DNA of 35,070 nucleotides from Acidiphilium sp. PA (GTDB lineage Bacteria; Pseudomonadota; Alphaproteobacteria; Acetobacterales; Acetobacteraceae), in NCBI RefSeq assembly GCF_026191915.1, contig NZ_JAIMBY010000025.1, positions 1-35,070 on the forward strand. The letters run 5' to 3'. Numbering within the stretch: the first letter of the stretch is position 1; the number at the start of each line of letters is the position of its first letter. This document shows positions 9,915 through 29,519 of this stretch, one piece after another. A program made the position numbers and the translations under genes. Under the pieces are notes generated by a model. It was not told where the DNA came from. It searched no databases and was given only the letters and a program-made list of their open reading frames with translations.

Positions 9915-10045
9915 CGCATGGCGACGGGACCGGCACCATTGCCGGCGAGCCGCCCTGCCCTGCGGTGCGCCGGTACGGCGCCGACGCGGGGCCGGGTGGC
10001 GCAGGCGGCAATGGAGCGCAGCGGTGCCGGGAACGGTGCCATGCG
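9915..10045 (-). ncRNA. Leader RNA element E6 (short, divergent type)
   Basis: An outer stem CGCATGGC (9915-9922) / GCCATGCG (10038-10045) encloses a second stem CCGGCAC (9930-9936) / GTGCCGG (10024-10030) and a third CATTGCCG (9937-9944) / CGGCAATG (10006-10013). The bulge between the last two carries CGCTGCGCTC on the minus strand, the segment shared with E4. It stands 80 bases before the ParB-domain gene start and 20 bases after the preceding gene's stop. It lacks the TGCGCGTGGCT segment of the full-type elements, so family membership is less certain. Confidence 0.45.
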
Positions 10046-10064
10046 ATCGCAGGGGGGAGAAAGG

Positions 10065-10694
10065 CTACAGACCGGCGAACAGGTCCGGCTGGGTGTCGAA
10101 CGATGCTGGGATTGGAGTGCGGCCGCTCGATCCAACGTGTGGCCGCGCAGATGTCTGGCCGTCAGGCATGATGTCCGCTGTGAAACACTCGCACGCGGTA
10201 GCTTTTGCGTCCGCCGGATTGGAGATGTTGCCGTCAATCGGTCCTGGGGTGAATTTCCGGGCCAATCGCTCGTACTCGGCGCGTTCACGCGCTTCACGTT
10301 CCTGCATGAGCAATCGCCGGTGGCAGTCGATCACGCCCGATTGTTTCAACCGGGCGCGGATGACCTGCTCGACGTCGCTGTAGGTCCAGGCGGGGTCACC
10401 GTAGCAGGGGTGGCGGATCGTCTGGTCGAGGAAGTCGAGCTTGGTGGCGCGGCTTATGAAGAATTCGCTCCAGAAACCATGTCGGTCGTAGCAGGCGATA
10501 TGGCCGAAAGTGTTCGAAAGGCGTTGGTAGAATTTCTGGGTGAACATGGTCTCCGGGAAATCCTCCGCGATGAACCGAAGCAGATGGTTGCCGAATTTCG
10601 CTTTGGTCGGCGCGTCATCCCATTTCGTGGGGGTGAATTGCTCTGGGGTCAGCAAGGGCAGACGGATCGCGCGGGCGAGCGCGGTGGGGAGCAT
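10065..10694 (-). CDS. Hypothetical plasmid protein (209 aa)
   Basis: I do not recognise a family. The protein is soluble and mixed alpha/beta, with a compact first 125 residues (MLPTALARAIRLPLLTPEQF; ETMFTQKFYQRL; CYDRHGFWSEFF) and a helical charged stretch (LLMQEREARERAEYERLARK). The last 60 residues look disordered. A strong GAAAGGAGA site precedes ATG 10694. It lies 80 bases downstream of the methylase/helicase gene on the same strand and probably shares its transcript. Confidence 0.7.
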   Translation of the reverse strand: MLPTALARAIRLPLLTPEQFTPTKWDDAPTKAKFGNHLLRFIAEDFPETMFTQKFYQRLSNTFGHIACYDRHGFWSEFFISRATKLDFLDQTIRHPCYGDPAWTYSDVEQVIRARLKQSGVIDCHRRLLMQEREARERAEYERLARKFTPGPIDGNISNPADAKATACECFTADIMPDGQTSARPHVGSSGRTPIPASFDTQPDLFAGL

Positions 10695-10774
10695 GGCGAT
10701 CTCCTTTCGGGTCTCGGTGTCTTTGTCGTTGGAAAAGGATGGGAGGGTTGGGAAGGGGGGGCGTTCCCCCTCCT

Positions 10775-13700
10775 TTATTCGTCCTGATCGGCACCAGACG
10801 ACGCCGTACCGACATCATCGGTCGGATCGTCCTCGAGAGAGGAACGTCGCGCGAACATGGCGGGGAATTCCGGGGGTTGGTCCCCTGCCCCGCTCGCGTT
10901 CGGACCAGCGCCGGTGTTGGCCTCGCTCTCCGTGGCGGCCAACGCCTTGTCGATCGCGGCCAGTTCCGCCAGTTTGGCATCGAGTTCGCCTTGCAGCTCG
11001 AAGGGCACCCCGAGGCGGGACTGGTATTCGCTGATCCGGTGCTCGGCATTGATCAGATCCTCCTGCGCTCGGTCACGCTGCATTTCGAGGCGGTTGATCA
11101 CGGATTCGATGCGGGCGATCACCCCGAGGGCGTTCATCTCATCCGGCATTTCGATCGTGAGGCGCTGGTCGGTCAGATGCAGGATCACCTTCGCGTCGTC
11201 GATCCCGCCCTGCCTGGAGCGCATCACCCGCAGGCTGAATTCGAAGCCGCCGATCTCGCCAGCGATCGCCTCCTTCTGCTCCCACGCGCTTTCCATGATA
11301 GTGCGGATCAGCGCCGATCCGGCATGCTTGCGCTCGGTAAACCGGGTCTCGCCAATGGTCATTGCAAACGCATCGCCGGTGGTGTCGATCCGCCGCGCGA
11401 TGTCCTTCTCAAATCCCGCGATCCGCTTGGTGGCGGTCTCGATCGACCAGCGTGCCTCGTTCAGGGTGCGACGGATCGAGATCTGCCCGTCGATATGTGC
11501 GTCACTCAGGCGCCGGAGCCGGGCCAGCTCGGCTTCCAGCCCGGCTTTCTGCATCAGCCGTTGATCCCCCGAGGCGATCGCCTTGGCCATGGCAAACTGG
11601 TTGGACTGACTACCGGCGTCCTCCAGCCGGCGGATCGTGCGATCACCCGACAGCGAGGCTTCGATGAACCGCTGCTTGCGCTCATTGTTCTGCCACATCG
11701 TCGCATCCATGCTGGTCTGCGTCGCATAGGCATAGATCGCGATTTCCTCGTTCTGGTTGCCCTGCCGCTCGATCCGGCCTTCGCGCTGCTCGATGTCCGA
11801 GGGGAGCCACGGCACGTCGAGATGGTGCAACGCCACCAGCCGCTTCTGGCCGTTCACGCCGGTGCCCATGGTCTGCGACGATCCGATCAGGATCCGCACC
11901 CGCCCGGCGTTGAAGTCGGAGACCACCCGCTGCTTGTCCGCCGCCTTGCGGTAATCCTGCATGAAGGCAATCTCCCCGGCGGGCACGCCGCGTTCGATCA
12001 GCTGATCCCTGATCCAGCGATAGGCCGAGAAGCCGCGGGTCTTCTCGACGTTCATCGTGCCGAGATCGGAGAAGATCATCTGACCCGCGCCGTGATTGGG
12101 GTAGGGTTCCCCGCTGGCATCGAGGTATCGCCGTGCCGCCGTATCCCGCCATATCTCGAACACCTTGTCGATCAGCGCGTTCAGTTTGCTGTCGGGATCC
12201 GGCATGCCGCCCTGGGTCACCAGACGCAGATCGATCGCCGCATGGCGGCCATCGGTGATCACCGAGAGGAGGATGTCATCACCCTTCTGTGGCTTGCCTT
12301 TCCGCGCCTCGATCTCCTTGATCCGCTGGTCGAGAAAGCGCTGGTACATCCGGAAATGTGTGCTGGGTTCGAGGGCGACCAGCTGGCGCTTGCCGGTCGC
12401 AATCCGGGGGAGTTTCAGATACGCGCGCAGATCGGCCTTCTGGACGACGTCGGCGAAGCTGCGGAAGATGTCGATCAGCTCCGGTACGTTGACGAATTCC
12501 GAGAACCTGGTGACCGGCTTGTATTGGCCCGACGGCTGGAGTTCGAGATCGGTGCGTGCGTCGCCGAAATTCGCCGCCCAGCCGTCGAAATGCTGCAAAC
12601 CCATCCGGGTCAGGATATCTTCGGCAAAGAAGCGCTGCAGCGTGTAGAGTTCACCCATGGTGTTGGTGATCGGCGTGCCGCTCGCCATCAGCAGGGCGCG
12701 GCCGGGGTTCTTCTGGTCGACGAACCGGGCCTTGACGAACAGGTCCCACGCCCGCTGCGAGCCGTTCGGATCGACGCCCTTCAGGGTCGCCATATTGGTG
12801 GCGAAGCTGAGCTTGCGGAATTCCTGCGCCTCATCGACGATGATCTGATCGATGCCGATCTCGCCGATCGTCAGCAGGTCGTCCTTGTCGCTGCCCAGCG
12901 CTTCGAGCCGTGCCTCGAACCCCTCCTTGATCCGCTCGATCCGCTTGCGGCTGATCCGGTCGTCGCTGTCCACGCTGGTCAGGATTTCCTCCATCGCCGC
13001 GATCTGGTCCTCGAGCATCGACCGCTCGAAGCTGGCCGGGACGGCGATGAACTTGAATGCGGAGTGGGTGATGATGATGCAATCCCATTCCCCCGTCGCG
13101 GCGCGGGCGAGGAAGCGCTGGCGCTTCGCCTTCGCGAAGTTCGTCTCGTCGGCGACCAGAATGCGGGCGGTCGGGTAGAGTTGTAGGAACTCGCGGCTGG
13201 CCTGGGCAAGGCAGTGACCGGGGACCACCATCATCGCTTTGGTGATCATACCGAGGCGTTTCTGCTCCATCACCGCCGCGGCTATCGAGAAGGTTTTGCC
13301 GGCCCCGACCGCGTGGGCGATGTAGGTTGCGCCATCGGCGATGATCCGCCAGATCACCCGCTTCTGGTGGGGGTAGAAGCTGATCACGCTCGATGCGCCG
13401 GGCAGGGTCAGATGCGAGCCGTCGAAGTAACGCGGCACCAGATTGTTCATTAGATCGTTGTAGATCCGGCAAAGCGTCTCGGCCCGTTCGGCGTCGGTCC
13501 AGACCCAGGACTGGAACGCGGTCTTGATCCTGCTCAGCTTTTCCTTGGCGGCCTCGGTCTCGACCACGTTGAGTTCGCGCCGTTCTGATCCGCCCGCATC
13601 CCGCCAGACGTCCCAGATCTGCGGGATTTGCGAATTCAGCGCGTCGTCGAGCAATTCACCGGCATGACGCCGGGCGGTGCCCCATTCGGTGGTGCAGGCG

Positions 13701-16054
13701 CCGACGCCGGCAAAAGCGGAAACGTTCAGCGTCCAGCTGCCGACCTCGCGGACGTGGTTCACTCGCGTAGTGACACCGATGATCTCCGTGCAGAAGCGCT
13801 CGATCACATTGGTCGGTATCCAGGTTGCCCCCAGGCGGGCAGTGATCTCGGACGGTTTCAGATCGACCGGCTGGGCCGCCTCGAGCGCGGTGACATTGCT
13901 CTCGAACCGAGGGTCCTCGACGGCGGCCGCGCGGGCGATCGCGAGCTTGGTGCGCACCGGGCCGGAGAGATAGGCGTCGGAGGTTTCCCAGCGGCAGGTC
14001 TCCGGGTTGAGGAAGATCGCGTTGGGCAGAAGAGAGATGACTGTCTCGGCGGTGGTGCCGAGCAATTCGGCGATATAGTCGGGATCGACGCTGCCCCGAT
14101 CGTGCAGGCAGACCGTCAGCGCGTCAGCCGCGGTCTCGATCATCGGCTCTGCGGGCGGGTGGATCACCCTTCGGTCGAAGATCGCACCGTGGCGGCCCTT
14201 GTCGCTGTCGAGATCGTATTCCTCGATCGAGGCGACCAGCCAGACATCGGGGTCATCCGCGAAGGGGGCGAGATTGGGTCGGCGGACGATATCGCGGGTC
14301 TTGCCGGTCTCCTCATCGGTGATCGTGACCACCTGCGTCCTGTTGATCGCGCCATAGGTCCGCACGAAGCGACCGTAGACCAGGCGGAGCTGCTGCTGAG
14401 CCTGCTGCCAGGGCAGATCGGCTTCCTGGGCGCGCAGCACCTCCCGGACCGCATCGCGGATCGGGATCAACCCGTCGATGATCTGGGCCGAGAGCAGCGG
14501 GATGCCGTCGCGCTTGGAATTCTTCTGCTTGACCGGGATCTCGGTCGGGATGCCGTCGACCACCTGATGCAGCCGGTTGCGGATCACGAGGTAACTGCCC
14601 TCGCGGATCGTCGCGCCGTCGGCGGCATGGCCGGTGTAGACCGGCTCGGCGACTTCATCGGTCTTGCGGAACCGGGCGGGGTCCGGGGCGTGAACGCCTG
14701 ATGGCAGGATGGCGAGCGCCTCATGGATTGCTGCTTCGAGGCCGGGGCCGGTGTCGCCCTTGCAGGTGTAGACCAGGCCGTAGGGGCTGGTGGTACGGTC
14801 ATGGGTGCCGAGCACCTGAGCCGGATGGTCGAGGAAATAGCGGTTGATCGCGACCGCCGGCGTCTCGTCCGTGGCGGGCAGCGCTTCGGCGGTGCCGGTC
14901 CAGTTTACCGGACCGGGGATCTCGTCATCGGCGCGGGCGCGGAAGACCAGCATGTCGACCACGACATCGGTGCCGGCATCGGCGCGCATCGCCCCGGCTG
15001 GCAGGCGCACCGCGCCGAGCAGATCGGCTTTGTCGGCGATGATCTTGCGCGCGGTATCGTCGATCTTGTCCATGGTCCAGCGGCTGACCACGAAGGCGGC
15101 GAGGCCGCCGGGGCGGAGGTGGTACATCGACCGTGCGATGAAATAATCATGCAGCGACATTGCCGTGGGAGGGATGATCTCCGTTAGGCGCTGGGTGCGG
15201 TCGGAGAAGGGCGGGTTGCCGATCGCGAGGTCGAAATCTCCAACCAGTTTCGCCTTGGTGAAATCCTCTCGCCTGATCTGGCTCTCGGGGAACAACAGGC
15301 GGGTAATGCGGGCGGTCACAGGGTCAGCCTCAATGCCGGTGAAATGGCTGTTCACGGCAATGGCTTCGGGCGCGAGGGCGAGGAACAGGCCAGTACCGCA
15401 CCCGGGTTCGAGGACACGCCCGCCGGCGTAGCCGAGCCGTGCCACAGCGCTCCAGAGCGCCCGGATGATGAATTCCGGGGTGAAGTGGGCGTATTGGGTG
15501 GCGCGCATCAATCCCGCCCGTTCGTGCGGGCTGACCAGGGTTTCCAGATCGCGGCCGATCTCGGCCCAGCCAGCGCGGAAACCCTGGTCCCCACGCGCTT
15601 GCGCCGCCGTCTCCTCACCCGCATCCGCACCTACGGTAAAAGGCAAGGTCGAGCCTGCGGCGCGGAATACACCTTGGGCCAGCTCGGTGCTGCTAAAGGC
15701 GCAGAACTTGATCAGCTGCGCCTGTTCGTCGGGTGTCGCCGGACGGTTCTGGGTTTCGATCAGCTGCAACAGACGGATCGCGGCGAGATTGTCCTGCGCG
15801 CGGGCTTTCCATCCGGCCGCGAGGTTGCGCGCACCGTCGAGCCGGAAGTTCCTCCCGCGACGTGCGGCATCGGACCGGGACGAACGACCCCCCTGCCCTG
15901 CTGGCGTGTCGGCCTCGTCGGTGTCGTCCACCGGGTTCTCCTTCATCGGGATACGGATCAGGCCGACCGGGTTGAGATCGGCTGGGGTGAGTGCGGTTGT
16001 ACCGAACAGGTCGAGACCGAGTTGGCCGCCCTGGTCGAATGGATTGATCGGCAT
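10775..16054 (-). CDS. N6-adenine methylase / SNF2-like helicase fusion (DarB-like)
   Basis: This 1759-aa protein joins two enzymes. Residues about 185-380 are a class-I methyltransferase: SAM motif EPGCGTG (216-222) and catalytic NPPF (280-283), typical of gamma-type N6-adenine methylases. From about residue 900 comes a superfamily 2 helicase: Walker A HAVGAGKT (near 913), Asp-Glu box DEAQ (near 1073), motif III ASGTPITNT and motif VI QREGRIERQGNQNE (near 1430). A helical C-terminal 300 residues follows. This methylase-helicase order resembles phage P1 DarB, which is packaged and protects incoming DNA from type I restriction, and large homologues on alphaproteobacterial plasmids. The presence of ArdC supports an antirestriction role, but a host-directed or replication role is possible. 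ATG 16054 has GAGGAT nine bases upstream. All catalytic motifs appear intact. Confidence 0.88.
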   Translation of the reverse strand: MPINPFDQGGQLGLDLFGTTALTPADLNPVGLIRIPMKENPVDDTDEADTPAGQGGRSSRSDAARRGRNFRLDGARNLAAGWKARAQDNLAAIRLLQLIETQNRPATPDEQAQLIKFCAFSSTELAQGVFRAAGSTLPFTVGADAGEETAAQARGDQGFRAGWAEIGRDLETLVSPHERAGLMRATQYAHFTPEFIIRALWSAVARLGYAGGRVLEPGCGTGLFLALAPEAIAVNSHFTGIEADPVTARITRLLFPESQIRREDFTKAKLVGDFDLAIGNPPFSDRTQRLTEIIPPTAMSLHDYFIARSMYHLRPGGLAAFVVSRWTMDKIDDTARKIIADKADLLGAVRLPAGAMRADAGTDVVVDMLVFRARADDEIPGPVNWTGTAEALPATDETPAVAINRYFLDHPAQVLGTHDRTTSPYGLVYTCKGDTGPGLEAAIHEALAILPSGVHAPDPARFRKTDEVAEPVYTGHAADGATIREGSYLVIRNRLHQVVDGIPTEIPVKQKNSKRDGIPLLSAQIIDGLIPIRDAVREVLRAQEADLPWQQAQQQLRLVYGRFVRTYGAINRTQVVTITDEETGKTRDIVRRPNLAPFADDPDVWLVASIEEYDLDSDKGRHGAIFDRRVIHPPAEPMIETAADALTVCLHDRGSVDPDYIAELLGTTAETVISLLPNAIFLNPETCRWETSDAYLSGPVRTKLAIARAAAVEDPRFESNVTALEAAQPVDLKPSEITARLGATWIPTNVIERFCTEIIGVTTRVNHVREVGSWTLNVSAFAGVGACTTEWGTARRHAGELLDDALNSQIPQIWDVWRDAGGSERRELNVVETEAAKEKLSRIKTAFQSWVWTDAERAETLCRIYNDLMNNLVPRYFDGSHLTLPGASSVISFYPHQKRVIWRIIADGATYIAHAVGAGKTFSIAAAVMEQKRLGMITKAMMVVPGHCLAQASREFLQLYPTARILVADETNFAKAKRQRFLARAATGEWDCIIITHSAFKFIAVPASFERSMLEDQIAAMEEILTSVDSDDRISRKRIERIKEGFEARLEALGSDKDDLLTIGEIGIDQIIVDEAQEFRKLSFATNMATLKGVDPNGSQRAWDLFVKARFVDQKNPGRALLMASGTPITNTMGELYTLQRFFAEDILTRMGLQHFDGWAANFGDARTDLELQPSGQYKPVTRFSEFVNVPELIDIFRSFADVVQKADLRAYLKLPRIATGKRQLVALEPSTHFRMYQRFLDQRIKEIEARKGKPQKGDDILLSVITDGRHAAIDLRLVTQGGMPDPDSKLNALIDKVFEIWRDTAARRYLDASGEPYPNHGAGQMIFSDLGTMNVEKTRGFSAYRWIRDQLIERGVPAGEIAFMQDYRKAADKQRVVSDFNAGRVRILIGSSQTMGTGVNGQKRLVALHHLDVPWLPSDIEQREGRIERQGNQNEEIAIYAYATQTSMDATMWQNNERKQRFIEASLSGDRTIRRLEDAGSQSNQFAMAKAIASGDQRLMQKAGLEAELARLRRLSDAHIDGQISIRRTLNEARWSIETATKRIAGFEKDIARRIDTTGDAFAMTIGETRFTERKHAGSALIRTIMESAWEQKEAIAGEIGGFEFSLRVMRSRQGGIDDAKVILHLTDQRLTIEMPDEMNALGVIARIESVINRLEMQRDRAQEDLINAEHRISEYQSRLGVPFELQGELDAKLAELAAIDKALAATESEANTGAGPNASGAGDQPPEFPAMFARRSSLEDDPTDDVGTASSGADQDE

Positions 16055-16941: not shown

Positions 16942-17340
16942 TCAGATCATGCCGAGAGCGAGCAGCCAGGACGGTGCGCCGTCCGGCGAATGGCCGTCGG
17001 GCTCGACCTCCTCGCCATCGGTGGCTTCGACCACGCTGTCGGTGGACCAGCGCTCGATCTCGGTCATCGTGGGCAGGTCGGTGATCGACCGGGCCCAGGC
17101 CGGGAGATTGGTGATCGCCAGTGCTGCCCGCTCGAACCGCTCGGCCTTGATCGCATCGGTATCGGCAGGTGCGCGGGTGCGTACCCAATCCGAGCACACA
17201 TCACGGACATAGACGGCACCATCCTCGCGGTAGGAGATCAGGCGATGGAGTTTGATACTGAAAAACCGATAGCGTTCGGGTTCCGCGCCGCTGGGCTGGG
17301 ACGGCGCGTTCTTATGCAGGATTTCCGGGGAGGCTGACAT
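16942..17340 (-). CDS. Hypothetical protein (132 aa), first gene after leader E1
   Basis: Unknown family. Notable segments are a Tyr/Arg-rich stretch (RYRFFSIKLHRLISYR), an Asp-rich acidic second half and a hydrophobic end (PSWLLALGMI). I take ATG 17340 as start because GGAGA lies eight bases before it. The same frame stays open upstream through the leader element to an ATG at 17517, so a longer product cannot be excluded. It begins a three-gene operon led by element E1. Confidence 0.65.
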   Translation of the reverse strand: MSASPEILHKNAPSQPSGAEPERYRFFSIKLHRLISYREDGAVYVRDVCSDWVRTRAPADTDAIKAERFERAALAITNLPAWARSITDLPTMTEIERWSTDSVVEATDGEEVEPDGHSPDGAPSWLLALGMI

Positions 17341-17375: not shown

Positions 17376-17437
17376 ATCCTTCGTTGTTCTCTGGATTTCT
17401 CTGATCTACCCATCGCGTGACCGCAGCCCGGCGACGG

Positions 17438-17540
17438 CGGGCAAGGGCGCGAGCGGGCACTTGGCCCGCTCGCGGGAAACGCAGCCACGCGCAACCGGCG
17501 CTTGCGCCGGTGAGCATGGCGAGGCCCTACCCCTTGCCGG
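17438..17540 (-). ncRNA. Leader RNA element E1 (full type)
   Basis: Read on the minus strand: stem P1 (GGCAAGGG from 17538-17531 pairing with CCCTTGCC from 17447-17440) closes a junction with two arms. P2 is CCGGCG/CGCCGG (17495-17510), extended by GCCATGC pairing with GCGTGGC across an internal loop. P3 is a perfect 10-bp hairpin (17449-17458 / 17464-17473). The joining sequences TAGGGCCTCGCCATGCTC and TGCGCGTGGCTGCG are shared with E2 and, in part, with E3 and E5. It lies 100 bases before the start at 17340. Confidence 0.75.
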
Positions 17541-17649
17541 CCGAGGCGGGTGCGGTAGCCGATTTTCCTGTTTGGCTTTCTGCGCTTTTCTCTTTCATTT
17601 TTCTGATTTTGCGTTAGAGCCCGATTGAGATCATTAAGAGGAATTGGAT

Positions 17650-18843: not shown

Positions 18844-20067
18844 TCAGGGGACGGTGAGCCGATCCGGTTTCGCGGCAATAAGATCACGATATCGGTCGCG
18901 GACAGCGGGGCCGGTCAGGTAGTCAGCGTCGATGTCGAGCAGCGTGCCGATCCTGCGGCGGATGCTTGCCAACAGATCGGCGTCTTCATGAGACGGCACG
19001 GTGGTCGGCCAGCCTTTGACGTAGAGGAGATGATGGGGCAGCCGTGCTTCCAGACGCATCCGCTCGTGCGCAGCGAGCCGGGCCCGCGTCACCGCACGTC
19101 GCATATCGGCGTCGAGCAGATGCGGCGCGGTGTCGGCCAGCCAGCGGCTTCCCTGAAAAGCAAAGGTCGATCGGGCTTCGAGATCGACCATGGCGCGGTA
19201 GATGTCACGGTTCTCCGGACAGGAGGCGGCGGCCCGGAGATCACCGATCGAACTCATGATGCAGAACACGCACGACACACGGGTCGAGCCGTAGACGTCA
19301 TAGGCTTCATGCGTCAGACCCGCCTCTCCGATGGTTCGCCAGACCTGCTCGATCGGCCAATCGATGATCGGGTTCCAGACGAAAGCCTCGCGGGTTCTGG
19401 TCGTGAGGTTGGTATCGATGGCGCTGACCGGCTTGCCGCGTCGGTTTGTACTCTCCTGCCGCCTGATCCCGGTCACGTTCAGGATCGGTCGACCGGGGAA
19501 GCGTTTGGCCAGCGCCGATGCGATGATCCTGGTTTTCATTTCGGAGGTGCAGAACCGCATCGATGGCGTGCTCCATGGCAGGATCACCTGCACGCATTCG
19601 AGGGCTGCATAGCGGGCGACGTTGTTGGCCCAGCGCCCATGCCACCGGTGCAGCATATCCCCGGCCTGCCGGCGGACAACGACCAGTTCCCAGCCGATCC
19701 GTTCGGCGAGGCGCTGGCAGGCGGGGAGACTGTCGCGCCATTCCACGCGGCCGAGATCGGCGTGGATCAGGATGCGCGGTCCCGCGTGGCCGATGGCTTC
19801 CAGATAACGATCTACCGCGATGGCAACCGCGCAGGAATCCTTGCCGCCACTGACCCCGATTGCAACGGCGGCATCAGCGGCCAGCAGGCGCTCGACCTCC
19901 GGGGTCAACGCGATCGGCGGGCATTCGGAATCCCAGCCGGTGCCGATGGCAGTGTTGGCGTCGGCATCGAACGGAAGCTTCCCTTGCCAGCTTTTGGTGA
20001 GCGGGAGGGCGGATCGTCCGCTATCCCCCCTGCCCTGCTCCGCGCTTGCGGAGCAAAACGCGTCCAT
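18844..20067 (-). CDS. PAPS-reductase/ATP-pyrophosphatase-family protein
   Basis: The 407-aa protein has the PP-loop SGGKDS at 73-78 in the strand AVAIGVSGGKDSCAVAIAV, a HADLG segment, RFCTSEMK with a conserved Cys, the substrate-loop region GIRRQEST, a WNPIIDWPIEQVW block and SCVFC. These features belong to the phosphoadenosine phosphosulfate reductase superfamily that includes phage/plasmid forms, IbrA and the DNA phosphorothioation protein DndC. The paired cysteines could hold sulfur or an iron-sulfur cluster. Real sulfate assimilation is unlikely in this context; DNA or tRNA modification or regulation fits better. Its ATG overlaps the ardC stop (TGATG), so the two are translationally coupled. 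A GTG one codon earlier is also possible. Confidence 0.85.
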   Translation of the reverse strand: MDAFCSASAEQGRGDSGRSALPLTKSWQGKLPFDADANTAIGTGWDSECPPIALTPEVERLLAADAAVAIGVSGGKDSCAVAIAVDRYLEAIGHAGPRILIHADLGRVEWRDSLPACQRLAERIGWELVVVRRQAGDMLHRWHGRWANNVARYAALECVQVILPWSTPSMRFCTSEMKTRIIASALAKRFPGRPILNVTGIRRQESTNRRGKPVSAIDTNLTTRTREAFVWNPIIDWPIEQVWRTIGEAGLTHEAYDVYGSTRVSCVFCIMSSIGDLRAAASCPENRDIYRAMVDLEARSTFAFQGSRWLADTAPHLLDADMRRAVTRARLAAHERMRLEARLPHHLLYVKGWPTTVPSHEDADLLASIRRRIGTLLDIDADYLTGPAVRDRYRDLIAAKPDRLTVP

Positions 20068-21134
20068 CACGCAGCCGTCGCGAGAGGTTCGACAACAGGC
20101 ACAGCCTGGTCGTCGAACTCGTCGAGCGTGTCTCCCGGATCGCCGTCGCCGTCCTGCTCTCCCGCGCCGGCTTCGTTGGCCGTTCGCACCGCAGTCGCGT
20201 AGTCGGCATGAAAGCCGAGGATGTAATCGGCCACGCGCTGTGCATCGGCCGCCGCGCGGAAGATCGCCTTCCTATCGGACCTGATGACGGTCATCCAATC
20301 GGCCAGGTAGCTGGCGGTATTCTCGATCTCGGCCTCGACGCCGACTACGGTGCAGATGTTCACCGAGGCGATCGACACCACCAGTTCCTCGAACGCATAA
20401 GCCGCTGAGCCGAACCGACCACCCTGGCTGAGGTTCAGCCGAGGTGCCGCATAGGCATAATGGGACAGTTCATGCAGCGCCGTATATGAGAAGGCCGCAT
20501 CGTTGCGGAACGCGGCCTTGGGCGGCAGGTAGATGCAGTCCCGTGATGGCACGAAGCACGCTTGCGAGCCGCCGTAGTGGATGGTGGCACCGCTGCTGTC
20601 GAGGATTGTCTGGACCGCCTCCGGCGTGCGCCACGGCTCGGCTGCGATCCCCGGTGGGTTATAGACGGGAATGCCGTCGATCTGGGTTGCATGAAAGACC
20701 GTGGAAGCCCGCAGCATGAAGAACGGGCGTGCTCCCTCCCCTGCGGTATCAGGAGAAACGAGAACCGTCTCCCCGTCCTCGCCGCCCGGCCGCTGGAGCT
20801 TGCGATAGAACACGACGGTGGTGCCGCGTTCGCCCTTGCGGACCTGCCAGCCCCGGGCTTGCGCCTGCCGGTAGGAGCACCAGCGCGGATCGCCGTTGAA
20901 CGCCGCATCCTGCATCATGCCGAGCAGCAGATTGTTGATCCCGCGGTAAATCCGTCCCGTCGTCGGGTTCATCGGTGCGCCGGCGAGGCCCTGATCCCAG
21001 CCCCGCTGCCACGGCAGCACGCCGCGTTCGAGCGCAGCGAGGATCTTGTCGGTCACCTCCTGGTAGATATCGCGGGGATTGGGATTCAGATTGGTATTGG
21101 CTGTGCAGGAGCGCGGCCATCTGGATTTGTTCAT
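20067..21134 (-). CDS. ardC: ArdC-type antirestriction protein (zincin)
   Basis: The 355-aa protein has an N-terminal ssDNA-binding ArdC domain (about 20-145: DIYQEVTDKILAALERG, LPWQRGW, NPTTGRIYRGINNLLL, VRKGERGTTVVFY) and a C-terminal metallopeptidase domain with zinc motif HELSH at 221-225 and a downstream glutamate in AFEELVVSIAS (249/250). Plasmid ArdC proteins bind single-stranded DNA and protect incoming plasmid DNA from restriction during transfer. ATG 21134 has GGGAGA seven bases ahead; this site sits in the loop of a hairpin (21136-21160) and the gene is led by element E2. It is the first gene of a four-gene operon running to 18134. A frame starting in the leader ends on its start codon. 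Confidence 0.92.
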   Translation of the reverse strand: MNKSRWPRSCTANTNLNPNPRDIYQEVTDKILAALERGVLPWQRGWDQGLAGAPMNPTTGRIYRGINNLLLGMMQDAAFNGDPRWCSYRQAQARGWQVRKGERGTTVVFYRKLQRPGGEDGETVLVSPDTAGEGARPFFMLRASTVFHATQIDGIPVYNPPGIAAEPWRTPEAVQTILDSSGATIHYGGSQACFVPSRDCIYLPPKAAFRNDAAFSYTALHELSHYAYAAPRLNLSQGGRFGSAAYAFEELVVSIASVNICTVVGVEAEIENTASYLADWMTVIRSDRKAIFRAAADAQRVADYILGFHADYATAVRTANEAGAGEQDGDGDPGDTLDEFDDQAVPVVEPLATAA

Positions 21135-21268
21135 CGGTATTTCTCCCTTCCTGAAACACCGTTTGGCGGCCGCGTCGGGGCGGGCGGGGCAAGGGCGCGG
21201 GGCGGGCCGTTTGGCCCGTCCCGCGGGAAACGCAGCCACGCGCAGCCGGCGCGGGCGCCGGCGAGCAT
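21131..21268 (-). CDS. Possible leader peptide within element E2 (45 aa)
   Basis: The conserved ATG inside the element opens a 45-codon frame, rich in Arg, Pro, Gly and Ala, that ends with the TGA inside the ATGA of the ardC start. That exact junction would couple translation of the two. No clear ribosome binding site is present beyond a G-rich stretch, and GC-rich DNA often stays open by chance, so this is only a candidate. Confidence 0.3.
   Translation of the reverse strand: MLAGARAGCAWLRFPRDGPNGPPRALAPPAPTRPPNGVSGREKYR
21136..21160 (-). promoter_or_regulatory. Hairpin presenting the ardC ribosome binding site in its loop
   Basis: GGTATTTC (21136-21143) pairs with GAAACACC (21153-21160), eight pairs with one G-T. 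The nine-base loop, read on the minus strand, is AGGAAGGGA: the Shine-Dalgarno sequence of ardC. It is the E2 counterpart of the P4 hairpins. Confidence 0.5.
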
Positions 21269-21290
21269 GGCGAGGCCCTACCCCTTGCGG
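21186..21290 (-). ncRNA. Leader RNA element E2 (full type)
   Basis: P1 is GCAAGGG (21189-21195) with CCCTTGC (21282-21288). P3 is a 13-bp stem (21196-21208 / 21213-21225) with one G-T pair. P2 is a 7-bp stem (21245-21251 / 21256-21262), extended by the conserved GCCATGC / GCGTGGC pairing. The junction sequence equals that of E1 almost completely, while arm sequences differ. It lies 54 bases before ardC and about 65 bases after the stop of the SANT-repeat gene. Confidence 0.75.
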
Positions 21291-21353
21291 CGCGCGACCC
21301 GCATGCGGCATTGCTTCACGCTCGCGGCGGAGATCGCTTTCATGTCTGCTGTC

Positions 21354-24033: not shown

Positions 24034-24081
24034 GGGATGTCTCCGGGGGAGTGCCGAGGAAAGATTCGGCATGTTGAAACG

Positions 24082-24110: not shown

Positions 24111-24188
24111 GGATTGAATTCGTCGGAGTAATTCGGATCAGGACCGGAACGTCGCGTTCACAATGACGTCGTGGTCACAATGACGCGG

Positions 24189-25321: not shown

Positions 25322-25342
25322 GAGAAAAAGCTCCGTGAATGA

Positions 25343-25369
25343 AAAAGCCCGGTGCGAGACCGGGCTTTT
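25343..25369. terminator. Bidirectional terminator hairpin
   Basis: A perfect 11-bp stem AAAAGCCCGGT / ACCGGGCTTTT with a five-base loop. The A/T ends provide a T-run in either direction. It ends the DUF6878 operon on the minus strand. Confidence 0.75.
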
Positions 25370-25393
25370 CGGAATGAGAGGGAAAGCTGACGA

Positions 25394-25666: not shown

Positions 25667-26022
25667 GATGCGGTTCCTTCCAGAATGTCGCGGTCCAGCG
25701 TGCTGCGCGATCCCATCCAGGCTTCCGGCCGGATCGCGCGCACCCAGTCAGCGAAGCTCGGGATGCGACCGAGATCTTCTTTCACGTGCTGTTCGGCGAT
25801 CAGCCGGACCGGAACGATCCGGCCTGCGCTGTTGGTCAGAACGTGACCGAACACGCGCTCGGTGATGAAGATGCCGCTCGAGTGGTGGAGCGCTGCGCGG
25901 TGCCGAAAGTCGGCGACCGCTGCCTTGCTGGAATCGAGGAAGTCATGGATCGCCTGGTAGTCGTCGGGTGAGCCGCCCCACTGACGCGCGGATGACACCG
26001 CATGGTGATACGGATGTGCCAC
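25663..26022 (-). CDS. DUF6915-like protein (119 aa)
   Basis: The sequence matches my memory of DUF6915: MAHPYHHAVSSARQWGG at the start, DDYQAIHDFLDSSKA, DFRHRALHHS-like segment (DFRHRAALHHSSGIF), then TNSAGRIVPVRLIAEQHV and EDLGRIPSFADWV. The many conserved His residues could bind metal, but the function is unknown; the family is common in phages and plasmids. I prefer the GTG at 26022 because it matches the family start and follows GAGG, whose first bases are the stop of the upstream gene. An ATG at 26046 lacks a ribosome binding site and would overlap the upstream gene by 17 bases. Confidence 0.75.
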   Translation of the reverse strand: MAHPYHHAVSSARQWGGSPDDYQAIHDFLDSSKAAVADFRHRAALHHSSGIFITERVFGHVLTNSAGRIVPVRLIAEQHVKEDLGRIPSFADWVRAIRPEAWMGSRSTLDRDILEGTAS

Positions 26023-26029
26023 GGGGCCC

Positions 26030-26587
26030 TCACATCTCGTGTTCATAGTAATTTGTTTCGGTGTAGCGTTCGTTCATCTCCAGCCGGATCGTCTCGCTCT
26101 CGACATCGAATCCGCACTCGCCGAATCCGCCGTCGTTGTTCTCCCATCCGTCGTGCTTTGCGCCGATGAAGTCCCAGAAGATCTCCTCGATGATGTCCTG
26201 GATCAGGGATGATTTTTCCATCTCCTGGACTTCATAGCCGGCGCAGCGCTGCCCGCTCGGTGTCTCCGAACAGGGTTCATATCGTTCTTTCATTGTAGCG
26301 AACGGATAGGGGATGGGTTCCGCCGGCAGATCGATCGGCTTTTTCTCCGCGTCGTAAGCCTCGACCGATTCGATCTGGCCACTGTCGCCGTAGCCATCGA
26401 ACGTCACGGTGACGCGCGTGATCCCGGCAGCTTTCAAGGCGCCGAACAGGATCGGTTTGGCTTTTCGCAGGATCGAGCTTTGCAGTTTCTGGAACTCGGT
26501 ATGTGCCACCGTGTAGTCAGCAATCAGCGCGGTCGCGGTGGCAACCGATGCCGGTTCGGCCGTCGGTGTGGTGGAATGATCGCTCAT
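26030..26587 (-). CDS. DUF6878-like protein (185 aa)
   Basis: The central segment (ALKAAGITRVTVTFDGYGDSGQIE split over about residues 45-75) is the hallmark of DUF6878, small proteins of phages and plasmids without known function. The C-terminal half is acidic and ends ETNYYEHEM. I use ATG 26587 with GGAGA nine bases ahead; a second, equally good start at ATG 26653 (GAAAGGAAAA before it) adds 22 residues, and the frame stays open further up through leader E3. It is the first gene of a three-gene operon with DUF6915 and the 90-aa gene. Confidence 0.75.
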   Translation of the reverse strand: MSDHSTTPTAEPASVATATALIADYTVAHTEFQKLQSSILRKAKPILFGALKAAGITRVTVTFDGYGDSGQIESVEAYDAEKKPIDLPAEPIPYPFATMKERYEPCSETPSGQRCAGYEVQEMEKSSLIQDIIEEIFWDFIGAKHDGWENNDGGFGECGFDVESETIRLEMNERYTETNYYEHEM

Positions 26588-26665
26588 GGGGTGGTCTCCG
26601 TCTGATGGGTATGGGGGAAGAGAACGATGGTGGAGCTGCTCGCGCAGTTTCATGGATTTTCCTTT

Positions 26666-26684
26666 CATCTTCTTCGTGAAGATG
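26666..26684 (-). promoter_or_regulatory. Second leader hairpin (P4) after E3
   Basis: CATCTTC (26666-26672) pairs with GAAGATG (26678-26684), loop of five. On the minus strand it is followed directly by AAAGGAAAA, the ribosome binding site of ATG 26653. Confidence 0.5.
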
Positions 26685-26711
26685 TCCGGATCGCGGCCAC
26701 GGCGGTGCCGG

Positions 26712-26822
26712 GCGGGGCAAGGCTGCGCAAGGGTGCGGAGCGCCCGCAGCGCAGGACCAGAGCCACGCACAGCCTGCCCTCCGGGGCAGGCGAGCATGGC
26801 GTGGACCCACGCCTTGCCCCGC
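26712..26822 (-). ncRNA. Leader RNA element E3 (full type)
   Basis: P1 is a perfect 12-bp stem, GCGGGGCAAGGC (26712-26723) with its complement (26811-26822). P2 is GCCTGCCC (26772-26779) / GGGCAGGC (26784-26791). P3 is a two-part hairpin (26724-26728 / 26749-26753 and 26731-26736 / 26740-26745). Junction sequences GGGTCCACGCCATGCTC and TGTGCGTGGCTCTGG match the family. Compared with E1, the inner end of P1 changed from GGG/CCC to GGC/GCC, keeping the pairs. Confidence 0.7.
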
Positions 26823-26860
26823 ACGGACCGACCGTGGCAGCCGGGCCTACACCGATCGCT

Positions 26861-27532
26861 TCAGGCGACGGTTTGATCCACCCTCATCAACGTTGGCGTC
26901 GCTGACGTCGTGCGTTCAGCGGTTTCGATTTCAGCCGTTGCGAGCACACGCCCGCGGATCCGGTATCGGCCGCCAAGCGGACGGTCTCCGGCATCGACCG
27001 GCCGGAAAGCAAGAATCATTCGTCCCCGCCGTGACATAGCTTCGGCGATGAACCTGTCGTAGCTGGCCCCATCGGTAAACCGGAGCGGGGTTGCGAACCG
27101 GATGTGGGTACCGCTGACGATGCGCGCTTGCTGCCGCCGCTCGCCGGCTTTGCGTTCCCGAGCGGCAGCAACCCGTGCCCGCCAGTCCGCCGCATATCCC
27201 GCGCCGGGCAGTTGATCGATCGGGGTCAGCAGATTCATGATCCCGACCGGGCAATCGACCTCGCAGGGACCAACCGACTCGTCCATCGGCTTGTAACCGA
27301 AATCGCCATCGCGGCCCATTTGCGTCAGGTATACATAGGCCACGGTGTATGGCGCCTGATCGGGAATGCCGATCAGAACCGCCGCATACCAGGTCGAACC
27401 GACGAAGGCGGATTTGACCACCTTGATCTCGGCCCTCCCCGGCTTGTCGGCGATCTGCTCGATTTCGCTGCGCAAAAACGCATCCTTGTCGGCGGTGCTA
27501 CGACCACCGATCGGTTGATAATACCATCCCAT
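26861..27532 (-). CDS. Hypothetical protein, MGWYYQP-type (223 aa)
   Basis: The start MGWYYQPIGGRSTADKDAF recalls a small family of plasmid/phage proteins (possibly DUF6927-like; low certainty). The first 120 residues are a compact domain; after a charged helix (AARERKAGERRQQAR) a second domain begins (SGTHIRFATPLRFTDGASYD). AGGAG lies seven bases before ATG 27532. It stands alone between a terminator hairpin (27587-27606) and leader E3. Confidence 0.65.
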   Translation of the reverse strand: MGWYYQPIGGRSTADKDAFLRSEIEQIADKPGRAEIKVVKSAFVGSTWYAAVLIGIPDQAPYTVAYVYLTQMGRDGDFGYKPMDESVGPCEVDCPVGIMNLLTPIDQLPGAGYAADWRARVAAARERKAGERRQQARIVSGTHIRFATPLRFTDGASYDRFIAEAMSRRGRMILAFRPVDAGDRPLGGRYRIRGRVLATAEIETAERTTSATPTLMRVDQTVA

Positions 27533-27586
27533 GACGGGACTCCTGTGAGAGGGGTTAAAGCAATCACCCACCCCGAAAACGCCAAA

Positions 27587-27606
27587 GCCCGCCGATAAGG
27601 GCGGGC
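27587..27606 (-). terminator. Terminator hairpin
   Basis: A 7-bp stem GCCCGCC / GGCGGGC with a six-base loop, followed on the minus strand by TTTGGCGTTTTC. It ends the operon led by E4. Confidence 0.65.
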
Positions 27607-27646
27607 CTGCGGTTCGAGAGTGGGCAGGTGGCTGCCGACGTGCGGC

Positions 27647-28042
27647 CTATTCGTATAAGGGCCGTATCCGCGGGAAATGCGTCGGCATGATCTGGGCGCG
27701 CATGACCCGGACATCGTATTGCCCGACCGAGTTGGTCTGCGAGATGTCGGGACGGCCCTGATTGACCTCGGGTAGTTTCACTCGCATCTGCTCCGCGTGT
27801 ACGTTGGCCGCAGCGATGGTGCAGAAGCCCGCCGGGGCGGCTCCAAGGGTTTCATAGACCCACGGGTCGATCGCGAGGATGCCGGTTTGATACCACCATC
27901 CTCCTTCCTCAGGGCCGCCGTAACTCAGGTCGATCAGGAAAACCGCGACCCAGCAGAGGCCGGCCCCTTGATCATCGTCGGGACCGGACTCGTAATCGGT
28001 AGCCGTGGCCGGTGGCGTTTCGGCACCAATGGTATCGATCAT
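27647..28042 (-). CDS. Hypothetical protein (131 aa)
   Basis: Unknown family. It is acidic at the start (TDYESGPDDDQGAG), then has a hydrophobic strand (GLCWVAVFLIDLSYGG) and a domain with conserved-looking Trp/Tyr residues (EGGWWYQTGILAIDPWVYE). ATG 28042 follows GGGAG and overlaps the stop of the 38-aa peptide as ATGA. Confidence 0.65.
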   Translation of the reverse strand: MIDTIGAETPPATATDYESGPDDDQGAGLCWVAVFLIDLSYGGPEEGGWWYQTGILAIDPWVYETLGAAPAGFCTIAAANVHAEQMRVKLPEVNQGRPDISQTNSVGQYDVRVMRAQIMPTHFPRIRPLYE

Positions 28043-28155
28043 GGGACCACGCTCCCGTTCGATTGGATGACGGGCGGTGCGTGCAGGACGCCGATGGCCG
28101 GCATTGCGAGGATGACGTGGATCACGATGGCGAGGGTCATGACCCGGATCGCCAT
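28039..28155 (-). CDS. Very small membrane peptide (38 aa)
   Basis: One hydrophobic helix (MTLAIVIHVILAMPAIGVL) followed by a short tail. Its stop overlaps the next start as ATGA, the same coupling seen in neighbouring operons, which is the main support. The start is uncertain: ATG 28155 lacks a ribosome binding site, and an in-frame GTG five codons earlier is possible. Confidence 0.45.
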   Translation of the reverse strand: MAIRVMTLAIVIHVILAMPAIGVLHAPPVIQSNGSVVP

Positions 28156-28208
28156 GTCGAAATGCCACACGTTCAGTATGCGTAATCGTTTCCTGGGTTT
28201 CTCCTTCA

Positions 28209-28225
28209 GTCTTCTCCTTGAAGAC
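28209..28225 (-). promoter_or_regulatory. Second leader hairpin (P4) after E4
   Basis: GTCTTC (28209-28214) pairs with GAAGAC (28220-28225); the five-base loop reads AAGGA on the minus strand and a purine-rich GAAGGAGAAA follows. Confidence 0.45.
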
Positions 28226-28244
28226 CCCCTCCCCCGGCCGTATC

Positions 28245-28327
28245 GGGATGACCGGGGCAAGGGCGCGCGAGGGCGCTTGCGCCCGCACCACGGGAGCGCA
28301 GCGACAACCCCTTGCGGCGGTCATCCC
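28245..28327 (-). ncRNA. Leader RNA element E4 (short type)
   Basis: An outer stem GGGATGACC (28245-28253) / GGTCATCCC (28319-28327) continues, after a three-base internal loop, into GCAAGGG (28257-28263) / CCCTTGC (28309-28315). Inside, GGGCG/CGCCC (28271-28284) forms a hairpin, and CGCTGCGCTCC lies in the junction on the minus strand, as in E6. It precedes the 38-aa/131-aa operon by 90 bases. The 28328-28461 stretch beyond it holds nothing I recognise. Confidence 0.55.
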
Positions 28328-28461
28328 GCATGCGGCAGGGAATTGTCCTAACTGCCGGGTCTTATTTGCTTGTCAGCGCCCCACGCTGATTTCAGGGGCG
28401 GTGATTGCCGTTGAGCCGTTCCGCCGTGGTGATCGGGTCAACCGTGTTGTTGCGTTTTTGC

Positions 28462-28614
28462 CTACCAGCGTACGCTGCCACGTTTTCTGCGCACCCGTCT
28501 GGCTTTCCACGCCACCAAGGCGTGTTTCATCTTATCAATCTGTGGCGCGAATATGTAGCCGAACGCAGCGCCGGACATCATAACCGTCAGAAGGTTTCTG
28601 AAATAGTCGCTCAT
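28462..28614 (-). CDS. Small membrane protein (50 aa)
   Basis: A short hydrophobic segment (LLTVMMSGAAFGYIFAP, about residues 8-24) is followed by a strongly basic tail (KARRVRRKRG), which would lie in the cytoplasm. GGAG precedes ATG 28614, four bases after the stop of the HD gene, so it belongs to that operon. Confidence 0.55.
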   Translation of the reverse strand: MSDYFRNLLTVMMSGAAFGYIFAPQIDKMKHALVAWKARRVRRKRGSVRW

Positions 28615-28618
28615 TGTC

Positions 28619-29302
28619 CTACTCCGCCGCTTCGACTTGATCATAATCGATATGACCCGGTGACGTAGAAATTTCCTGCCGGGCACGAATCAGGCCACGC
28701 AACGTCTCCTCGAACCGTTCTGCTGCCAAATGCGCCGGCCATGGCTCCCAGGGCGCCATACCCGGTTGCACATTCAACGGGTCCTCATCAAGCGGCTTCA
28801 GGGTGATCCCGAGATCACGCCGCAGTGCCGGTTTCCGCCATCCGACGACGTGGAGGGCTTCGCTCGCGGCCGCCAGACGATCGGCATGCTTGTGCTGCCG
28901 GTGGATCGCGACCGTCCAGGGTGGGAGGTCGTAGCGGAGGTTCACAGCGGCCTGAAGACGGCGGTTGACCTCCGCATACCCCTCCCCGAGGTGTGGTTTC
29001 AGCGGGGTGATCGGATCAAAACCACCAATCAGTGCCTCCGTTGCATCGTGGAGTAGCTCACGCAGCGCCTCGCCCGGCGACAATGGTGACGGTGCGAGTT
29101 GCTGACGGATTGCCAACACCGTCAGACTGTGCTGGGCAACAGACAGCGGCAGATCCCAGCAGGAATGACCGCCCCAACGATAGGTGCGGGATAAGCCAGT
29201 CGCAAGATCAGTCTCGGTCCAGGCATTCGGTGCCGGATCCAGCAGGTTGAGGCGATTGCCGGAGCGAAACATGATCCACGCCCGCGGCAGTTGTTTGTTC
29301 AT
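28619..29302 (-). CDS. HD-domain phosphohydrolase, YfbR-like
   Basis: The 227-aa protein has the metal-binding His in SVAQHSL (58) and the HD pair in LHDATEALIGGFDPITPLK (85-86), nearly the motif of YfbR, a 5'-deoxynucleotidase that removes phosphate from dNMPs. The RAWIMFRSGNRLNLLDP beginning is typical of the plasmid/phage forms. It may adjust nucleotide pools during plasmid or phage replication. GGAG lies nine bases before ATG 29302; an ATG 54 bases earlier is less likely. It is led by element E5 and followed by the 50-aa membrane protein. Confidence 0.85.
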   Translation of the reverse strand: MNKQLPRAWIMFRSGNRLNLLDPAPNAWTETDLATGLSRTYRWGGHSCWDLPLSVAQHSLTVLAIRQQLAPSPLSPGEALRELLHDATEALIGGFDPITPLKPHLGEGYAEVNRRLQAAVNLRYDLPPWTVAIHRQHKHADRLAAASEALHVVGWRKPALRRDLGITLKPLDEDPLNVQPGMAPWEPWPAHLAAERFEETLRGLIRARQEISTSPGHIDYDQVEAAE

Positions 29303-29388
29303 CGGAAGATCTCCTTGGCGATCGAGAGGAAGACCACCGGACCATCCATGTTGCATTCTCTGTCTCGATCACCCCAGAGCCACCGCGG

Positions 29389-29519
29389 CCCGGTGATCCC
29401 GGCAAACGCGCAGGCGTCCGTGTTCGGATGCCTGCGGGGCCAGAGCCACGCGCAAGGAGCGCGGTATCTGCCGCGCGATTGAGCATGGCGAGGACCCACC
29501 GTTTGCCGGGGTCATCGGG
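29389..29519 (-). ncRNA. Leader RNA element E5 (full type)
   Basis: P1 is GGCAAACG (29401-29408) / CGTTTGCC (29500-29507), extended outward to 20 positions with two mismatches. Where E1 has GGCAAGGG/CCCTTGCC, both strands have changed together. P3 is a 12-bp hairpin (29409-29420 / 29425-29436) with one G-T. P2 is GCGCGG (29459-29464) / CCGCGC (29471-29476). The junction GGGTCCTCGCCATGCTC and TTGCGCGTGGCTCTGG match the family. It lies 87 bases before the HD gene. Confidence 0.75.

What the first reader, a model, noticed from the sequence alone, without database searches (positions are those of the whole stretch)
9915..29519. A family of structured leader RNAs (E1-E6) before at least six plasmid operons, with covarying stems
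Seen directly: at 17438-17540, 21186-21290, 26712-26822 and 29389-29519 the minus strand has the same order of parts: P1 arm, TRGGKCCWCGCCATGCTC, P2 hairpin, TGYGCGTGGCT, P3 hairpin, closing P1 arm. P1 changes as GGCAAGGG/CCCTTGCC (E1), GGCAAGGC/GCCTTGCC (E3), GGCAAACG/CGTTTGCC (E5). P2 and P3 sequences are unrelated between copies but always complementary. GCCATGC can also pair with GCGTGGC (one G-T), extending P2. Shorter relatives precede the operons at 28.1 kb (E4) and 9.8 kb (E6), sharing CGCTGCGCTC. All lie 50-125 bases before a start codon, on the sense strand. Inference: a cis-acting RNA (regulatory leader, protein-binding site or riboswitch-like) used by one plasmid to co-control unrelated genes. 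I recall no named RNA of this kind.
Basis: partly seen in the sequence, partly recalled or inferred. Interest (0 to 1): 0.9.

Follow-up and report, generated by a model that had tools for sequence, protein, structure and literature searches.

The report
Hairpin switches in plasmid leading regions
The plasmid carries the same folded DNA signal in front of several of its first-entering, anti-defence operons; it belongs to a family found in many Alphaproteobacteria that most likely lets a new host read those genes while the incoming plasmid is still a single strand of DNA, though no one has yet tested that.

Summary
The observation largely holds. Four copies (E1, E2, E3, E5) are full members of one family (covariance model E 3e-10 to 1e-16), E4 is a weak member (E 4e-4), E6 is not a member. 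The family is large: 126 copies aligned, in named plasmids of Acetobacteraceae, Rhodobacterales, Hyphomicrobiales and Sphingomonadales and in many contigs, with very strong covariation; the window has no Rfam match. The reading as a leader RNA is disfavoured: G.T and A.C cells are equally rare in the stems (43 and 44), whereas a riboswitch control from the same bacterial family gives 21 and 5. In 11 plasmids with transfer genes in view, 24 of 25 copies point toward the oriT inferred from gene layout, and downstream genes are leading-region genes (ArdC, ArdA, SSB, ParB, helicase-methylase). In two plasmids a nic motif makes the transferred strand the template. The stem usually holds a TTG box (54 of 76) and ends about 20 nt below it, where a sigma70 promoter would open. 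Best reading: a new family of single-stranded-DNA promoters, Frpo-like in job but not in sequence. Weak points: no -10 consensus, no expression data; a priming site or RNA leader remains possible.

The parts
17433..17545 (-). E1, full element before the operon starting at 17340
   Evidence: CM R1 66.7 bits, E 3e-15; opposite strand folds as DNA with z -3.7
21181..21296 (-). E2, full element before ardC (ATG at 21134)
   Evidence: CM R1 47.6 bits, E 3e-10; ArdcN and zincin domains downstream; DNA fold z only -1.8, the element being 83% GC
26709..26825 (-). E3, full element before the DUF6878/DUF6915 operon (ATG at 26653)
   Evidence: CM R1 68.2 bits, E 1e-15; DNA fold z -7.1; Pfam
29394..29514 (-). 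E5, full element; basal stem extends to 29382-29526 as 27 nearly perfect pairs
   Evidence: CM R1 72.2 bits, E 1e-16; inverted repeat I7 27 nt, 93% complementary; DNA fold z -10.4
28249..28323 (-). E4, short variant: intact CAA/TTG stem, reduced top
   Evidence: CM R1 24.3 bits, E 4e-4; counterparts in contigs C13 and C26, E 0.003-0.004; DNA fold z -4.8
9890..10035 (-). E6, a different hairpin before parB; not a member by the model
   Evidence: DNA fold z -4.6; no CM hit better than E 4 here
2550..2750 (-). very long hairpin before ssb (another candidate single-strand signal, different family)
   Evidence: 2535-2770 folds at -76.6 kcal/mol on the + strand as DNA, no shuffles run; SSB PF00436 at 2044-2532
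20067..21134 (-). ArdC-type antirestriction gene
   Evidence: PF08401 1.8e-33, PF18818 2e-39
18844..20070 (-). PAPS reductase family gene, DndC-like
   Evidence: PF01507 9e-8; PADLOC DndC 4e-8
10775..16054 (-). 1759-aa methyltransferase/SNF2 helicase gene
   Evidence: SNF2-rel_dom and Helicase_C over cut-off, Eco57I below its cut-off
7985..9835 (-). ParB-type plasmid gene
   Evidence: PF02195 1e-13; NF010406 1e-188, 628 bits against a cut-off of 640
2044..2532 (-). single-strand binding protein gene
   Evidence: PF00436 6e-34

Best explanation
Each element is a single-stranded-DNA promoter of the plasmid's leading region. During conjugation the transferred strand (the + strand here) enters the new cell first and folds into a branched hairpin at each element. 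The hairpin's long basal stem recreates double-stranded DNA with a TTG box acting as the -35 element, and the stem ends about 20 nt further on, leaving the -10 region already open. The recipient's RNA polymerase binds this fork and transcribes toward oriT, using the transferred strand as template, so that antirestriction, SSB and establishment genes are made before the second strand exists. Once the plasmid is double-stranded the hairpin is gone and the promoter is off. Shown here: the conserved structure, DNA-like pairing, direction relative to the inferred oriT, gene content, spacing. Inferred: that the window's + strand is the transferred one (its oriT is not in the contig), polymerase binding, transcription from the single strand, shut-off.
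For: Covariation: 130 double-change cells against 40 in shuffles, 0 of 500 as high, 24-43 when partners are slid. DNA-like pairing: G.T 43, A.C 44 of 2490 cells against TPP 21 and 5, Fisher p 0.006; relative tolerance 0.83 (0.59-1.16) against 2.4 (1.1-8.5). Direction: 24 of 25 copies in 11 plasmids point toward the inferred oriT with the relaxase gene (in Shinella, the mob genes) beyond it; that the relaxase is typically on the lagging side is from a passage of PMC11541004. Strand: nic motif TAAGTGCGC on the minus strand in Jeongeuplla and Acidisoma, whose copies read on the plus strand (MOBQ consensus from a passage of PMC3832669). Genes: ArdC, ArdA, SSB, ParB, DUF932, polyvalent-protein domains, methylase downstream. 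Position: same-strand gene start within 18-213 nt in 25 of 34 annotated copies; ORF with SD-like start downstream in 38 of 62 against 11 of 62 mirrored. Geometry: arm pairing exceeds mispaired arms up to position 20 below TTG (0.93 against 0.70 at 19) and is at control from 25 (61 copies chosen for CAA in the left arm).
Against: TTG is not invariant: 54 of 76 aligned copies, A or C next in 50 of those 54. No TATAAT at 15-19 nt: best -10 score of 2 or more in 11 of 61 non-template arms, 3 of 61 on the other arm, but up to 8 of 61 at other offsets. First base after the stem is A in 13 of 30 against 17% in shuffles, suggestive only, and 27 of the 57 copies folded fell outside the distance range counted. 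Shinella p5 has a second copy in the wrong direction between converging genes; a partial copy in Skermanella also lies between converging genes. In Cereibacter pDE a 47-nt BLAST match (not confirmed by the model, so not counted) has the mobF gene on its sense side before any likely oriT, which would be against. The better fold of the transferred strand (67 of 80) is partly composition: shuffles 71%. No expression data were available.
Confidence: 0.55

Rival explanations
1. Single-strand initiation (priming) site: the folded transferred strand recruits primase, PriA or RNA polymerase only to prime the complementary strand.
For: Strand, region and DNA-like pairing fit equally well. Masai and Arai 1997 (title only, in the reference lists shown) name Frpo as serving both transcription and priming. 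Converging-gene copies in Shinella and Skermanella suit this better than a promoter.
Against: Several copies per plasmid, mostly one before an operon at a promoter-like distance (25 of 34 within 18-213 nt; 38 of 62 against 11 of 62). A priming site needs neither.
Confidence: 0.19
2. RNA leader: the mRNA 5' end folds and binds a protein or ligand that controls translation or termination.
For: Sense strand lies before start codons and the conserved T.G pair is a G.U wobble only in the sense strand (74 of 80).
Against: No wobble preference elsewhere; tie to transfer direction; no Rfam match at the elements. Beyond the outer arm no position out to 50 nt before CAA exceeds 0.2 bits in 61 copies, so no upstream promoter at fixed distance; one at variable distance would not show.
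Confidence: 0.15
3. Double-stranded or cruciform binding site for a plasmid regulator that switches the operons together.
For: Imperfect palindromes with conserved half-sites GCCATGC/GCGTGGC and CAA/TTG.
Against: P2 and P3 keep pairing (96% and 86% of cells) while their sequence and length vary, which a duplex site does not need. I did not look for a shared regulator; three small plasmids name none in common beyond ribbon-helix-helix or ParG-type proteins.
Confidence: 0.07
4. Mobile palindromic repeat (REP or MITE-like) that has spread within the plasmids.
For: Several copies per genome; E1 and E2 are 94% identical over 67 nt, so copying within the plasmid may have happened.
Against: Other copies differ in their stems and match counterparts at the same place in parallel plasmids (spacings alike in C18, C22, C26); strongly oriented (24 of 25).
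Confidence: 0.03

Closest known systems
Frpo1/Frpo2 of plasmid F and the Frpo/ssi-like promoters of ColIb-P9
   Same: Stable hairpin of the transferred strand upstream of leading genes (ssb, psiB and others), more than one per plasmid; the F region fetched here has the same kinds of gene: methylase, antirestriction, SSB, ParB, PsiB, DUF932
   Different: The covariance model has no significant hit before the F ssb or antirestriction gene (best E 8.1 and 9.6); about 110 nt branched fold with a conserved core instead of a stem-loop with canonical -10 and -35 boxes; copies covary rather than being near-identical (Frpo1 and Frpo2 share 92%, passages of PMC9849209)
STAXI motif (Weinberg 2010, PMC2864571, passage read)
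   Same: Conserved structure near SSB and antirestriction genes that its authors thought might act as single-stranded DNA
   Different: Tandem pseudoknots; here single nested three-way junctions kilobases apart; no Rfam hit at E up to 1 in the window (that STAXI is an Rfam family is recalled)
Riboswitches and protein-binding leaders (TPP used as yardstick)
   Same: Covarying structure before start codons
   Different: No G.U tolerance over A.C and oriented by DNA transfer

Membership tests
Frpo/ssi single-stranded DNA promoters | lies in the leading region on the transferred strand, genes read toward oriT | tested here: met
   24 of 25 copies in 11 plasmids; nic motif strand in 2 of them. In the other 9 both oriT and the T-strand are inferred from the layout of relaxase or mob genes
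Frpo/ssi single-stranded DNA promoters | transferred strand folds into a stable hairpin | tested here: met
   five of six window regions (E6 included) z -3.7 to -10.4, E2 -1.8; covariation
Frpo/ssi single-stranded DNA promoters | hairpin rebuilds canonical -35 and -10 boxes | tested here: inconclusive
   TTG box in 54 of 76, stem ends at the expected place, but no -10 consensus
Frpo/ssi single-stranded DNA promoters | sequence similarity to known Frpo | tested here: not met
   model has no significant hit before the F ssb or antirestriction gene; its best F hits, E 0.005, are repeats just after sopB. Only F was tested
Frpo/ssi single-stranded DNA promoters | transcription by RNA polymerase from single-stranded DNA | not testable with these tools
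   needs in vitro transcription or conjugation reporters
cis-acting RNA leader / riboswitch | helices conserved as RNA (G.U tolerated over A.C) | tested here: not met
   43:44 against TPP 21:5, p 0.006; with MAFFT alignments alone 17:11 against 30:11, p 0.30
cis-acting RNA leader / riboswitch | match to a known RNA family | tested here: not met
   no Rfam match in the window at E up to 1; in 9 related loci 3 hits below threshold, none at an element
mobile palindromic repeat | near-identical copies at scattered sites in any orientation | tested here: not met
   oriented and at corresponding places in parallel plasmids; but E1 and E2 are 94% alike over 67 nt; target duplications not tested
STAXI motif | structure repeated in tandem, two or usually three times | tested here: not met
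   window copies lie kilobases apart; pseudoknots were not tested for

The most novel reading that the evidence does not exclude
A class-wide, structure-coded single-stranded-DNA promoter family of alphaproteobacterial plasmids, whose duplex stops at the -12/-11 fork so that RNA polymerase needs no melting step and no -10 consensus, and which switches on the whole anti-defence regulon only in the minutes after entry.
Probability: 0.38. Interest if true: 0.88.

Novelty: new variant of a known kind. Interest (0 to 1): 0.72.

Why it matters
Single-stranded promoters are described for enterobacterial plasmids such as F and ColIb-P9. Samuel et al. 2024 (passages read) searched for relatives by BLAST with five known sequences and by -35/-10 consensus; this family lacks a -10 consensus and a recognisable likeness to F, so it would probably have been missed. 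If right, it gives a searchable mark for leading regions across Alphaproteobacteria, points to uncharacterised genes behind each copy as anti-defence candidates, and offers many natural variants of one fold for asking how RNA polymerase starts on single-stranded DNA.

Tried and rejected
Riboswitch or leader RNA: lowered after the wobble test. A MAFFT-only version of that test was weaker and not significant (17:11 against 30:11, p 0.30); the structure-aligned version is the one quoted. Its TPP set (29 after de-duplication) was aligned with a model built from the same 30 sequences, while the element set had 26 training and about 100 further copies.

Sigma70 -10 box: sought on both arms, not found. 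First base after the stem: weak. Fold stability by strand: partly composition. Conservation upstream with the TTG anchor says little, because element length varies; the CAA anchor is the better look.

CM search over 386 class genomes found only the own genome and one other; the tool scores few candidates per genome (10 in most rows shown), so this is low sensitivity, not absence. The pattern search of 299 family genomes is the better count: 38 hold it, 0 for the backwards pattern.

Rows dropped: one search was given 100 of 113 loci L048-L160 (13 left out by eye as off-target); 71 of the 100 had a hit at E up to 0.01. One search was given 49 loci: L161-L163, 16 of the 23 viral loci, the 29 family-genome loci L016, L017, L019-L045, and L188. 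The 126 copies came from 98 chosen sources. De-duplication at 85% identity with at least 60 letters left 80; 61 of these have CAA in the left arm and enough flank; 62 have 0.9 kb on both sides. Not among the 25 for want of a relaxase or mob genes in view: Komagataeibacter, Roseomonas, Rhodovastum, Lichenicola unnamed2, Skermanella. Not among them because the model does not confirm a copy at E 1e-4: Cereibacter pDx and pDE. The gene-distance and direction counts were made by eye from the printed tables; 9 of 34 copies miss the distance range, one of them (Paracoccus albus, L204 3176) because it overlaps the annotated gene start.

Full report
What is there. I use E1 (17.4 kb), E2 (21.2 kb), E3 (26.7 kb), E4 (28.3 kb), E5 (29.4 kb), E6 (9.9 kb). 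The window is the whole of contig C18 of a 4.54 Mb genome in 86 contigs. The core occurs exactly 12 times in that genome, on contigs C13, C18, C22 and C26, with like spacings in C18, C22 and C26, so these look like parallel leading regions rather than scattered repeats. E1 and E2 are 94% identical over 67 nt. The genome has four TrwC relaxases, on other contigs. The genus is not given; near-identical copies lie in Acidiphilium records (titles).

The family. CCWCGCCATGCTC, spacer, GCGTGGCT is in 38 of 299 genomes of the same bacterial family and the backwards control in none. Record titles with hits include Acetobacter, Gluconobacter, Acidiphilium, Shimia, Phaeobacter, Roseobacter, Paracoccus, Chelatococcus, Antarcticirhabdus, and metagenome bins named Nitrospinia and Scalindua. 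Consensus on the sense strand: outer arm, P1 (..CAA..), GTGGGTCC, TCGCCATGCTC, P2, TGYGCGTGGCT, CCGGTCCC, P3, P1' (..TTG..), outer arm, with P2 and P3 of varying sequence. It is a three-way junction.

Covariation. On 26 distinct copies 92% of cells pair, 130 cells show compensating changes against 40 in shuffles (0 of 500 reach it), and sliding the partner by 1-3 columns leaves 24-43. P1, P2, P3 and the outer stem all vary; the GCCATGC/GCGTGGC helix does not vary within those 26.

RNA or DNA. In 80 de-duplicated copies G.T and A.C cells, the conserved T.G pair aside, number 43 and 44 of 2490. TPP riboswitches from the same bacterial family, put through the same kind of model alignment, give 21 and 5 (Fisher p 0.006); observed-to-expected tolerance of G.T over A.C is 2.4 (1.1-8.5) for TPP and 0.83 (0.59-1.16) here. 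With MAFFT alignments alone the difference was smaller and not significant (17:11 against 30:11). I take this as moderate evidence that pairing is selected as DNA.

Context. Pfam places ArdC, PAPS reductase, a methylase-helicase, ParB and SSB in the window, all on the minus strand. In other lineages, of 10 proteins behind the element put to Pfam, 7 match: ArdA (twice), SSB, DUF932, ArdC, LPD29/30, an Eco57I methylase below cut-off. In annotated plasmids the gene behind is ArdC, the helicase, ParB, ssb, PAPS reductase, parA, a toxin or a methylase. These are unrelated proteins, mostly with one job: getting a plasmid established. A same-strand gene starts 18-213 nt downstream in 25 of 34 annotated copies; an ORF of 100 aa or more with SD-like start lies within 260 nt in 38 of 62 copies against 11 of 62 on the mirrored side.

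Direction. In 11 plasmids with transfer genes in view, 24 of 25 copies read toward the inferred oriT with the relaxase gene beyond (in Shinella, whose relaxase is not in the gene table, the mob genes): CP122395 2, Jeongeuplla 1, Acidisoma 1, Acetobacter plas4 4, Kozakia 5, Paracoccus albus 3, P. sediminicola 3, Sphingobium 2 (a duplicated plasmid), Pelagovum 1, Lichenicola unnamed5 1, Shinella 1 of 2. In Jeongeuplla and Acidisoma the MOBQ motif TAAGTGCGC lies on the minus strand of the oriT gap (family consensus from a passage of PMC3832669; that the strand after GCG is the leading 5' end is recalled). So in these two the transferred strand is the template of the genes behind the element. A short unconfirmed match in Cereibacter pDE would be against.

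Geometry. TTG stands in P1' in 54 of 76 aligned copies and A or C follows in 50 of those 54; it is invariant only in the 26 training copies. Pairing of the outer arms exceeds arms taken from different copies up to position 20 below TTG, peaks at 19 (0.93 against 0.70) and is at control from 25 (61 copies chosen for CAA on the left). If TTG is the -35 box, the duplex ends at about -13/-12, the fork that sigma70 holoenzyme holds when it opens a promoter (established knowledge). Against this, no -10 consensus was found and the base after the stem is A in only 13 of 30. This geometry was noticed after the fact.

Known relatives. F plasmid carries Frpo1 and Frpo2, hairpins of the transferred strand that drive leading genes on entry and fall silent on conversion to double strand (PMC9849209, passages). 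Samuel et al. 2024 found 13,089 Frpo-homologous promoters by searching with known Frpo/ssi sequences (PMC11541004, passages). The F leading region fetched here has the same kinds of gene, yet the model has only chance-level hits before its ssb and antirestriction genes (E 8.1 and 9.6). The STAXI motif is an earlier case of a structured element by SSB and antirestriction genes suspected to be single-stranded DNA (PMC2864571, passage). My searches of the held open-access library for single-strand promoters in leading regions or Alphaproteobacteria listed no paper that by title or abstract start names this family; one search showed 20 of 32 papers, subscription papers and preprints are mostly not held, and Weinberg 2017 could not be read.

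Verdict. A real, large, covarying family; most likely single-stranded-DNA promoters of leading-region genes; not shown to be so. E4 is a variant member. E6 is not a member, though another strong hairpin stands there, and a still longer one stands before ssb.

Noticed in passing
window 2550-2750, strand -: A hairpin of about 200 nt (-76.6 kcal/mol as DNA for 2535-2770) directly before ssb, with GGTCAGGGC/GGCCTTGACC inside; probably a second kind of single-strand signal in the same region.
   Followed up: partly
window 30974-30996, 32214-32236, 32237-32259: Three copies of GTGGGATTTCTTGAC around repA, iteron-like.
   Followed up: no
window 33626-34286: Dense short direct and inverted repeats of GCATCACG/CGTGATGC type beside the parA gene, perhaps a centromere.
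   Followed up: no
window 1116-2111, strand -: Gene matching the Mom DNA-modification family (1.7e-14) next to ssb: possibly another anti-restriction gene.
   Followed up: no
L198 17200-17295 (+) and 21912-22007 (-): Shinella plasmid p5 carries two copies of equal score in opposite directions flanking its rep region; the second lies between converging genes.
   Followed up: partly
L130, L151, L023 and similar, about 30-45 nt after P1': A further conserved stretch GTCGGGACGARGG, often able to form a small hairpin, follows the element in several lineages.
   Followed up: no
L062, L063: AT-rich copies in bins labelled Nitrospinia and Scalindua; in L062 the left arm read on the transferred strand has TTGCCG, 16 nt, TATAAT. 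May be wrongly binned plasmids.
   Followed up: no
L250 8343-8756: In plasmid F the stretch before the antirestriction gene folds on the transferred strand at -111.7 kcal/mol, a hairpin not checked against known Frpo sequences.
   Followed up: no
L205 25077-25123 (-): Short element-like BLAST match in Cereibacter sphaeroides 2.4.1 plasmid pDE on what may be the wrong side of the relaxase gene; not confirmed by the model.
   Followed up: no
L165, L168, L171, L172, L176: Copies in contigs filed as viral; L176 has ardC behind it, so some may be plasmids filed as viruses.
   Followed up: partly
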